A DNA stretch of 64,000 nt from positions 1 to 64,000 of the forward strand of contig CANQED010000003.1 in NCBI GenBank assembly GCA_947594425.1, read 5' to 3'. The position numbers were made by a program, and so were the translations under genes. A model generated the notes under the pieces. The model did not search any database. It worked only from the letters and a program-made list of their open reading frames with translations, and was not told the DNA's origin. Origin of the DNA: an uncultured Ruminiclostridium sp. (GTDB lineage Bacteria > Bacillota > Clostridia > Oscillospirales > Ruminococcaceae). Of the stretch, positions 11,387-15,142 are shown piece after piece. How positions within the stretch are numbered: the first letter of the stretch is position 1; every line of letters starts with the position of its first letter.

Positions 11387-11415
11387 TAGTATTGCCGCAA
11401 TGTATTTTTTTATCC
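11387..11415 (-). promoter_or_regulatory. candidate sigma-G-type promoter of the ger operon
   Basis: On the minus strand GGATA (11415-11411) and AATACTA (11393-11387) are 17 bp apart, close to the forespore sigma-G pattern (GHATR and CATWHTA). The -35 half lies in a small hairpin (TATCCC, loop, GGGATA). No good sigma-A promoter was seen here. Confidence 0.4.
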
Positions 11416-11436
11416 CGAAAAGGGATAATATCGATA

Positions 11437-11640
11437 TAAGCATACGGGAGCCGAGCCCGAGCCGCCCCACGACGATATTTCATTACGCCGTGGGGTGCGC
11501 AGCAGTTTTTACGGAGCAGATTTTCGTTCAGACGAGGAGACCGAACGAAGGCATACTGTATGTATGTCGAGCGAGGGCGACGAAGTATGGGCGGAAAGAT
11601 GCCCGTAAAAACCGGCTTGGGTTCGACTCCCGCATGCTTA
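11437..11640. mobile_element. 204-bp MITE-like inverted-repeat element
   Basis: The ends are 14-bp imperfect inverted repeats: TAAGCATACGGGAG (11437-11450) and CTCCCGCATGCTTA (11627-11640), 13 of 14 matching. If the outer TA is a target duplication, the element is AGCAT...ATGCT, which would suit an IS630/mariner-type transposase. Inside, a perfect 10-bp inverted repeat (GTTTTTACGG 11505-11514, CCGTAAAAAC 11603-11612) encloses two smaller stem-loops, giving a cloverleaf-like fold. A GGGTTCGACTCCC segment at the right end resembles a tRNA T-arm, but no tRNA can be drawn. It has no coding capacity and fills the gap between the ger operon and the DUF421 gene. Left-end sequence recurs at 15090-15120. 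Confidence 0.6.
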
Positions 11641-15089: not shown

Positions 15090-15120
15090 TACGGTAGCCG
15101 AACCCGAGCCGCCCCACGAC
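15090..15120 (+). repeat. solo copy of the 11.4-kb element's left end
   Basis: These 31 bases match 11443-11473 at 29 positions (core CCCGAGCCGCCCCACGAC). The similarity stops at 15120 and no right end is visible nearby. The 3' half supplies the ascending arm of the terminator at 15107-15137. Confidence 0.75.
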
Positions 15121-15142
15121 AATGCCTTTGGGCGGCTGTTTT
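15107..15142 (+). terminator. terminator after walJ
   Basis: AGCCGCCC (15107-15114) pairs with GGGCGGCT (15130-15137) over a 15-nt loop and is followed by GTTTT. The ascending arm belongs to the repeat-derived segment at 15090-15120. Confidence 0.65.

What the first reader, a model, noticed from the sequence alone, without database searches (positions are those of the whole stretch)
11437..11640. MITE-like element with cloverleaf-like core between germination and DUF421 genes
A 204-bp segment has 14-bp imperfect inverted ends (13/14) with a possible TA target duplication, no coding capacity, and a strong internal fold. The fold is a perfect 10-bp stem (11505-11514 with 11603-11612) around smaller stems such as CATAC/GTATG, GTCG/CGAC and TTCGTTC/GAACGAA. 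Internal stems are not needed for transposition, so the transcript itself may have a function. The element also separates two gene groups that may both act in spores.
Basis: partly seen in the sequence, partly recalled or inferred. Interest (0 to 1): 0.7.

Follow-up and report, generated by a model that had tools for sequence, protein, structure and literature searches.

The report
Mobile DNA element with conserved hairpin
The 204-base segment is one copy of a small mobile DNA element, seen in many Clostridia and some other Bacillota, that keeps a precisely folded hairpin through evolution although its end sequences change, and no enzyme that moves it was found.

Summary
The segment is one of 10 copies in its genome. 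Copies end at the inverted ends, and four relatives lack this insertion at the same place. Most copies in the genus are longer (about 280 bp). The fullest relatives have inverted ends, two long hairpins facing opposite ways a few bases apart, and a mini-hairpin: a four-way junction. The window copy is a short form with the left hairpin shrunk. The right hairpin (11503-11614, + strand) is the conserved part: 42 of 44 pairs show compensatory double changes, and the fold is strand-specific (239 G-U against 33 A-C cells). It matches 132 of 394 genomes of the order, 101 of 391 of the class and 13 of 329 of the phylum. No Rfam family matches at its gathering score. The own genome gave no match to IS630-type (DDE_3), Y1, TnpB-type or reverse-transcriptase models; other transposase families were not tested. 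One subfamily sits inside transcription terminators. Verdict: a real MITE-like element with an unusually conserved structured core and an unknown mover.

The parts
11437..11640 (.). whole element, short (204 bp) form
   Evidence: 10 copies in own genome, ends read; orthologous site without it in G035, G030, G029, G009
11437..11464 (+). left terminal inverted repeat (28 bp, 24 of 28 matching the right one)
   Evidence: direct reading; in 42 genus copies identity of the two ends within a copy exceeds shuffling within genome, 8 of 2000 shuffles as high (6 of 48 copies dropped)
11613..11640 (-). right terminal inverted repeat
11465..11495 (.). shrunken left hairpin (CCCCACG/CGTGGGG); about 76 bp found here in the 280-bp copies are absent
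   Evidence: alignment of 48 copies; 203-204 bp in 5 of 48 copies, 269-281 bp in the other 43
11496..11504 (+). central mini-hairpin TGC-GCA-GCA of the junction
   Evidence: predicted folds of this and related copies
11503..11614 (+). conserved core hairpin (models R1/R2), folded on the + strand
   Evidence: R1 111.6 bits (the window copy is one of the sequences R1 was built from); covariation; G-U against A-C bias
11505..11612 (+). outer 10-bp stem of the core, 11505-11514 with 11603-11612
   Evidence: exact here; all 13 pairs of the basal helix, which includes this stem, have double changes across 74 distinct hairpins
11550..11568 (+). apical hairpin of the core, GGCATAC/GTATGTC
   Evidence: compensatory changes in 6 of 8 pairs of this helix, 2 never vary
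15090..15123 (+). truncated second copy: left end only
   Evidence: 91% match to element positions 7-40, read

Best explanation
It is a short-form copy of a non-autonomous mobile element (a MITE in the broad sense). Shown: it is multi-copy, ends at terminal inverted repeats, is absent from the same place in relatives, and carries a core hairpin of about 111 nt whose fold is kept by compensatory changes, with a bias to one particular strand, across the class and, more rarely, the phylum. Inferred: the copies are moved in trans by an enzyme not identified here, and the core is needed as a folded single strand (ssDNA during movement, or RNA), because it stays the same while end sequences and insertion sites differ between subfamilies. 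I favour recognition of the folded strand by the mover or a host factor over a separate RNA payload, but only slightly. The window copy most likely has no role of its own; it is an insertion between a promoter-like block and the DUF421 gene.
For: Copies and sharp ends. Empty sites. Covariation on an alignment not made with a covariance model: 16 of 44 pairs with double changes against 10.9 in shuffles, 0 of 500 as high. On 74 distinct hairpins: 42 of 44 pairs, score 0.624 against at most 0.142 for slid pairs. RNAalifold on the same alignment predicts the same hairpin, 36 of 38 pairs with double changes. Strand bias: 147 G-U against 43 A-C cells; 239 against 33. Inverted hairpin pairs at E up to 0.001 in 18 of 64 sources (my count) and in 13 of 33 further sources (my count). 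Spread. Short forms lie at four different places in the own genome, so a full left hairpin is probably not needed to move, unless each lost it after landing. Different insertion habits with the same core.
Against: No mover was identified and no copy with a gene inside was seen. The inverted ends show no strand bias (G-U 30, A-C 37), so they look like ordinary DNA ends. Of 11 empty-site pairs only two show a clean single TA; by my reading four more are compatible and five are unclear or show none. Single-hairpin members carry the core on one strand only, which fits a symmetric end signal poorly. The G-U bias cannot tell RNA from single-stranded DNA, and structure and model were built on the + strand, which favours G-U over A-C. 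In one search one of five measures (pair types) was reached by 7 of 500 shuffles. Relatedness of the sequences was not corrected for. No expression data.
Confidence: 0.5

Rival explanations
1. The core hairpin is a functional RNA carried as a payload by several kinds of MITE. It is transcribed from neighbouring genes, and the inverted pair gives a sense copy whichever way the element is read.
For: Strand bias 239 G-U to 33 A-C; conserved unpaired stretches around AAGG, GACGCAG and the apical loop (my reading); one subfamily lies inside terminator stems, where it would be read into from either side; the same core with different end sequences.
Against: Around the window copy one weak promoter-like site was found, no more than in shuffles (mean 0.7); other copies were not scanned. 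No significant orientation preference in 32 scored genus copies (16 ++, 8 --, 5 -+, 3 +-; p 0.15 for 16 against 8; 16 others dropped as weakly scored). No Rfam match at gathering score.
Confidence: 0.35
2. An ordinary IS630/mariner-derived MITE whose inner fold is a by-product of its palindromic origin.
For: TA at both ends in 36 of 48 copies, single TA at two empty sites, 28-bp inverted ends.
Against: PF13358 absent from 15 of 16 element-bearing genomes, own genome included; strand-biased covariation with fixed internal loops is not expected of a by-product; the core is conserved while ends differ.
Confidence: 0.08
3. A REPIN-like pair of inverted hairpins moved by a Y1 (RAYT or IS200-type) transposase.
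For: Inverted hairpin pair, non-autonomous, next to genes. In the order sample 60 of 132 carriers have a Y1 match against 92 of 262 others (Fisher p 0.049, relatedness not corrected).
Against: 72 of 132 carriers have no Y1 match, among them G000, G029, G015, G066, G129 and G181.
Confidence: 0.03
4. A retroelement or an RNA-guided (TnpB-type) system.
For: Structured strand; insertion in terminators recalls group IIC introns (recalled).
Against: RVT_1 absent from 16 of 24 element-bearing genomes, own included; the TnpB-type domain reached its cut-off in only 2 of 24, own not among them.
Confidence: 0.04

Closest known systems
[quoted passage not shown]
   Same: Short, non-coding, inverted ends, multi-copy, intergenic, strong fold of the transcript (general features as in passages of PMC10969869, and recalled).
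   Different: A 111-nt inner hairpin is conserved by compensatory change across a class while the ends differ; no source element found.
REPIN / RAYT systems (recalled)
   Same: Pairs of inverted hairpins dispersed between genes and presumably moved in trans.
   Different: Larger hairpins with long inverted ends; no Y1 match in the own genome or in 72 of 132 carriers of the order sample.
attC sites of integrons (recalled)
   Same: A folded strand conserved by shape more than by sequence, one strand favoured.
   Different: attC core sites and integron integrase were not searched for; no such relation is claimed.
Group IIC introns (recalled)
   Same: A habit of inserting at intrinsic terminators, shared by one subfamily here.
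   Different: Insertion here is inside the terminator loop; no Rfam match at gathering score in the window and no reverse transcriptase in the own genome.

Membership tests
MITE (broad sense) | terminal inverted repeats coinciding with copy boundaries | tested here: met
   48 genus copies with both ends read; alignment
MITE (broad sense) | multiple dispersed copies, and sites without them | tested here: met
MITE (broad sense) | target-site duplication | tested here: inconclusive
   TA duplication clear in 2 of 11 empty-site pairs, compatible in 4, unclear or absent in 5 (my reading); none evident by eye in the terminator subfamily
MITE (broad sense) | shares ends with an autonomous element | tested here: inconclusive
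   in the four genomes whose end sites were printed (G000, G009, G029, G035) forward-then-reverse pairs lay about 180-255 bp apart, one 25 bp apart, none in the range of a gene-bearing element; some sites were unpaired, and G030's sites were not printed
IS630/Tc1-mariner derivative | DDE_3 transposase in carrier genomes | tested here: not met
   1 of 16, partial match only; own genome none
REPIN/RAYT | Y1 transposase in carrier genomes | tested here: not met
   absent from 72 of 132 carriers of the order sample, own genome included
TnpB/omega-RNA element | TnpB-type protein in carrier genomes | tested here: not met
   6 of 24 at E 0.001, 2 of 24 over cut-off, own genome none
Retroelement / group II intron | reverse transcriptase in carrier genomes | tested here: not met
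   8 of 24, own genome none
Known structured RNA (Rfam 15) | match to a covariance model at gathering score | tested here: not met
   none in the window; at relaxed E only matches far below gathering over elements, such as tmRNA 12.1 bits (gathering 47, E 0.076) in L046 and Leu_leader 20.9 (50, E 0.61) in L053;
tRNA-like element | tRNA fold detected and T-loop bases kept | tested here: not met
   ARAGORN found no tRNA at the element in the four element loci scanned (L001, L027, L031, L045); T-loop position A58 varies among copies (tRNA numbering recalled)
Integron attC | attC core sites and integrase | not tested
   not searched

The most novel reading that the evidence does not exclude
A previously undescribed class of mobile structured-RNA or folded-strand elements, spread mainly through Clostridia, in which the conserved unit is a hairpin recognised by shape and carried by several kinds of inverted-repeat ends with different target habits (TA sites, terminator loops), moved by machinery not yet known.
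Probability: 0.35. Interest if true: 0.9.

Novelty: new variant of a known kind. Interest (0 to 1): 0.72.

Why it matters
In the samples searched, about a third of the order's genomes (132 of 394) and a quarter of the class's (101 of 391) carry it, many in several copies, yet no Rfam family covers the copies scanned and none of four mover types tested is present in the own genome. If the hairpin is the recognised signal, there may be an unrecognised way of moving DNA in Clostridia; if it is an RNA, a widespread RNA has gone unnamed in Rfam. Both readings can be tested with the model built here.

Tried and rejected
IS630 source: not supported. Y1/RAYT: no match in 72 of 132 carriers of the order sample, own genome included; a weak positive association exists (60 of 132 carriers against 92 of 262 others, Fisher p 0.049, not corrected for relatedness). 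TnpB-type: none in the own genome. Reverse transcriptase: none in the own genome. Autonomous copies: two outward-facing hairpin pairs looked promising, but G332 C30 encloses a CapA-like gene and G855 C8 encloses ArsR-, rhodanese- and TSUP-like genes (names from my reading of the translations, not from a family search). Both G332 copies have their own pair of ends (L125, L155), so they are separate copies; for the G855 pair this was not checked. A recurrent neighbour protein: within 1.5 kb in 54 loci and in 69 loci of up to 8 kb, apart from clusters that include the element's own translations, no family was shared by more than six loci's worth of ORFs, and some of those are the same locus fetched twice. 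tRNA mimicry of the ends (GTTCGACTC resembles a T-arm): not kept among copies. Terminator-loop insertion as a general rule: false outside one subfamily (genus copies 1 of 48 at score 7 or more, control 6.6%; other families 1 of 47 rows at 9 or more, three loci counted in both orientations, control 1.8%; the one is L092 of G332). Phages: no match. Plasmids: one partial match, in Vescimonas fastidiosa; a second query gave none. Viral contigs: one exact pattern, none. Literature searches gave nothing that describes it; I saw search listings only, plus find passages of PMC10969869. One search used too loose an alignment and was discarded in favour. Script 102 stopped part way on a missing file; its rest was run.

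Full report
What is there. The 204-bp segment is real and repeated. BLAST of the own genome (2.60 Mb, 43 contigs) gave 10 copies: four match over nearly the whole 204 bp and six match in two blocks around a longer middle. In a sample of 60 genomes that includes the own, 7 had a match; besides the own, three congeners (G029, G030, G035) hold many copies, G009 two, G038 of another family only the core, and the G057 match is a 23-bp stretch without an element. A scan for the end motif with up to two mismatches found, forward/reverse, 10/13 sites in the own genome, 23/28 in G029, 22/28 in G030, 33/39 in G035 and 2/3 in G009, none for the reversed control motif. Some sites are unpaired, and one motif shared by G000, G029 and G035 looks like a tRNA gene end (my reading).

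Boundaries and insertion. I could read both ends of 48 copies. L046 and L072 had no readable start; the G038 copies L047-L054, the partial hits L082 and L083 and the contig-end piece L084 were left out beforehand. Two pairs of the 48 (L040/L057, L058/L060) have near-identical flanks in two species and probably are the same insertions. 36 of 48 begin and end with TA. For the window copy, four relatives (G035, G030, G029, G009) have the GerA-DUF421 interval without the element. For 16 other genus copies, flanks were searched in four genomes. For 11 of them I aligned a two-sided match; L037 had a two-sided match with 47 bp between the halves that I did not align, and four had none. Two of the 11 (L070/L205, L064/L206) show one TA where the filled site has TA[element]TA; four (L065, L041, L063, L061) are compatible; five (L055, L038, L062, L066, L059) are unclear or show no TA at the join. 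So TA duplication is likely but not proved.

Architecture. Of the 48 genus copies 43 are 269-281 bp and 5 are 203-204 bp. With model R1, 18 of 64 sources show a second core hairpin on the opposite strand next to the first, 3 to 16 bp away and mostly 5 (my count); 13 of 33 further sources do so with R2 (my count). Predicted folds put a mini-hairpin between the two hairpins and close the whole with the paired ends: a four-way junction. In genus 1 the left hairpin is divergent, and in the short form, to which the window copy belongs, it is reduced to CCCCACG/CGTGGGG. In G614, G1113, G1014 and G855 only one hairpin lies between the ends by my reading of the folds; the whole is 159-165 bp in the last three.

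The core. Minimum-energy folds of 12 printed sequences from three clades give the same irregular hairpin at the same alignment columns. On 42 sequences found by BLAST and aligned by MAFFT, 86.6% of pair cells are standard and 16 of 44 pairs have double changes (0 of 500 shuffles as high; slid versions at most 6 pairs; the count of pair types was reached by 7 of 500). On 74 distinct hairpins found with the model: 88.7%, 42 of 44 pairs, covariation score 0.624 against 0.142 at most when slid. That alignment was fitted to the structure and leans towards it, but RNAalifold, which predicts its own structure on it, found 38 pairs, 36 with double changes. Relatedness is not corrected for. Among mismatch and wobble cells G-U outnumbers A-C 147 to 43 and 239 to 33; the complementary strand would have the reverse, so the + strand of the core is the folded one. 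The bias is overstated to some degree because structure and model were made on that strand. The inverted ends show no such bias (30 against 37; 6 of 48 copies with an indel or shifted end were dropped there).

Spread. Model R1: 132 of 394 genomes of the order (E up to 0.01; 9 candidate places scored per genome, so copy numbers are lower bounds). Model R2: 101 of 391 genomes of the class (E up to 0.001) and 13 of 329 genomes of the phylum, three of them of the own order (the own genome among them) and ten outside the class sample's kinship label (E up to 0.0001). The samples overlap. A strict pattern scanned through the named genome collection gave 52 stretches, all titled Oscillospiraceae, Ruminococcus, Oscillibacter, or Clostridia/Clostridiales. 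Names of the G genomes are not given, so kinship is all that is known of them.

Insertion habits. In the subfamily of G038, G063, G079, G082, G099, G100 and G153, 37 loci were scanned with end motifs (several show the same place); nine insertions had both flanks. In seven the flanks pair with a stem score of 9 or more directly around the element, as expected if it sits in the loop of an intrinsic terminator with A- and T-runs; L113 has 9-bp arms farther out and L136 abuts such a hairpin (my reading). Mismatched flanks of the same nine reach 9 in 6 of 72 pairings and, with both orientations counted, 7 in 21%. Of 14 further places with only the right flank readable, 6 have five or more T in a row in the 25 bases printed. 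Genus-1 copies and other families show no such habit. Thus the same core goes with different ends and different sites.

Mover. None found. DDE_3 (IS630): 1 of 16 carriers, a partial match. Y1_Tnp: 152 of 394 order genomes, in 60 of 132 carriers and 92 of 262 others; none in the own genome. TnpB-type domain: 6 of 24 at E 0.001, 2 over cut-off, own none. Reverse transcriptase: 8 of 24, own none. No gene-bearing copy was seen, but the end-motif rows of G030 were not printed.

Known RNAs. No window match at gathering score. Relaxed searches over element loci gave only matches far below gathering: over elements tmRNA 12.1 bits (gathering 47, E 0.076) in L046 and several in L053 with E 0.34 to 5.8, mir-785 in L292; elsewhere a T-box leader in the flank of L036 (81.2 bits, gathering 93). 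The weak tmRNA match fits the T-arm-like letters at the element end.

Place of the window copy. It lies 25 bp upstream of the DUF421 start, just beyond a block (TGTATTTTTTTATCC..GATAATAT) kept in several relatives that looks like a promoter (inference). If so, the element would lie in the 5' leader of that mRNA. Relatives manage without it, so I assign it no function. Of 32 scored genus copies 24 lie between genes of one direction (16 with and 8 against the core strand, p 0.15), 5 between divergent and 3 between convergent genes; 16 were too weakly scored.

Judgement. Ordinary in being a MITE-like repeat; unusual in having a strand-biased folded core conserved across the class and reaching into the phylum, with no known RNA family and no detected mover.

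Noticed in passing
window 15090-15123 (L082): A truncated second copy of the element: left end only, just upstream of the next gene.
   Followed up: partly
window 11401-11431 and L176-L179: A block TGTATTTTTTTATCC..GATAATAT conserved between GerA and DUF421 genes in several congeners, perhaps a promoter region; the element is inserted just behind it.
   Followed up: partly
L358 2489-2585 (NZ_AP023416.1, Vescimonas fastidiosa): A core hairpin (58.9 bits) between the S14 gene and rpsH inside a ribosomal protein operon, on the strand opposite to the genes.
   Followed up: partly
L205 and L216: Two empty sites hold short palindromes (TAAGCTTA, TCAAGCTTGA) that could be excision footprints.
   Followed up: no
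right ends of many copies, e.g. window 11619-11640; L046 539-603: The inner part of the inverted repeat (GTTCGACTC) resembles a tRNA T-arm in several families; L046 gives a weak tmRNA match (E 0.076, far below gathering). The T-loop A is not kept.
   Followed up: partly
L036 1025-1201 (-): T-box leader-like RNA, 81.2 bits against a gathering score of 93, cut off at the end of the locus.
   Followed up: no
L127-L130, L172 (G294): Copies in G294 share similar flanks outside the inverted ends, as if lying in a larger repeated unit.
   Followed up: no
G029 C1 52812-52856: Two end motifs face each other 5 bp apart with nothing between, perhaps a deletion or excision product.
   Followed up: no
JAETOQ01 contigs (part of L237-L287): One named Oscillospiraceae MAG (S15_Bin1) holds many copies, several at contig ends, so the element probably breaks its assembly.
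   Followed up: no
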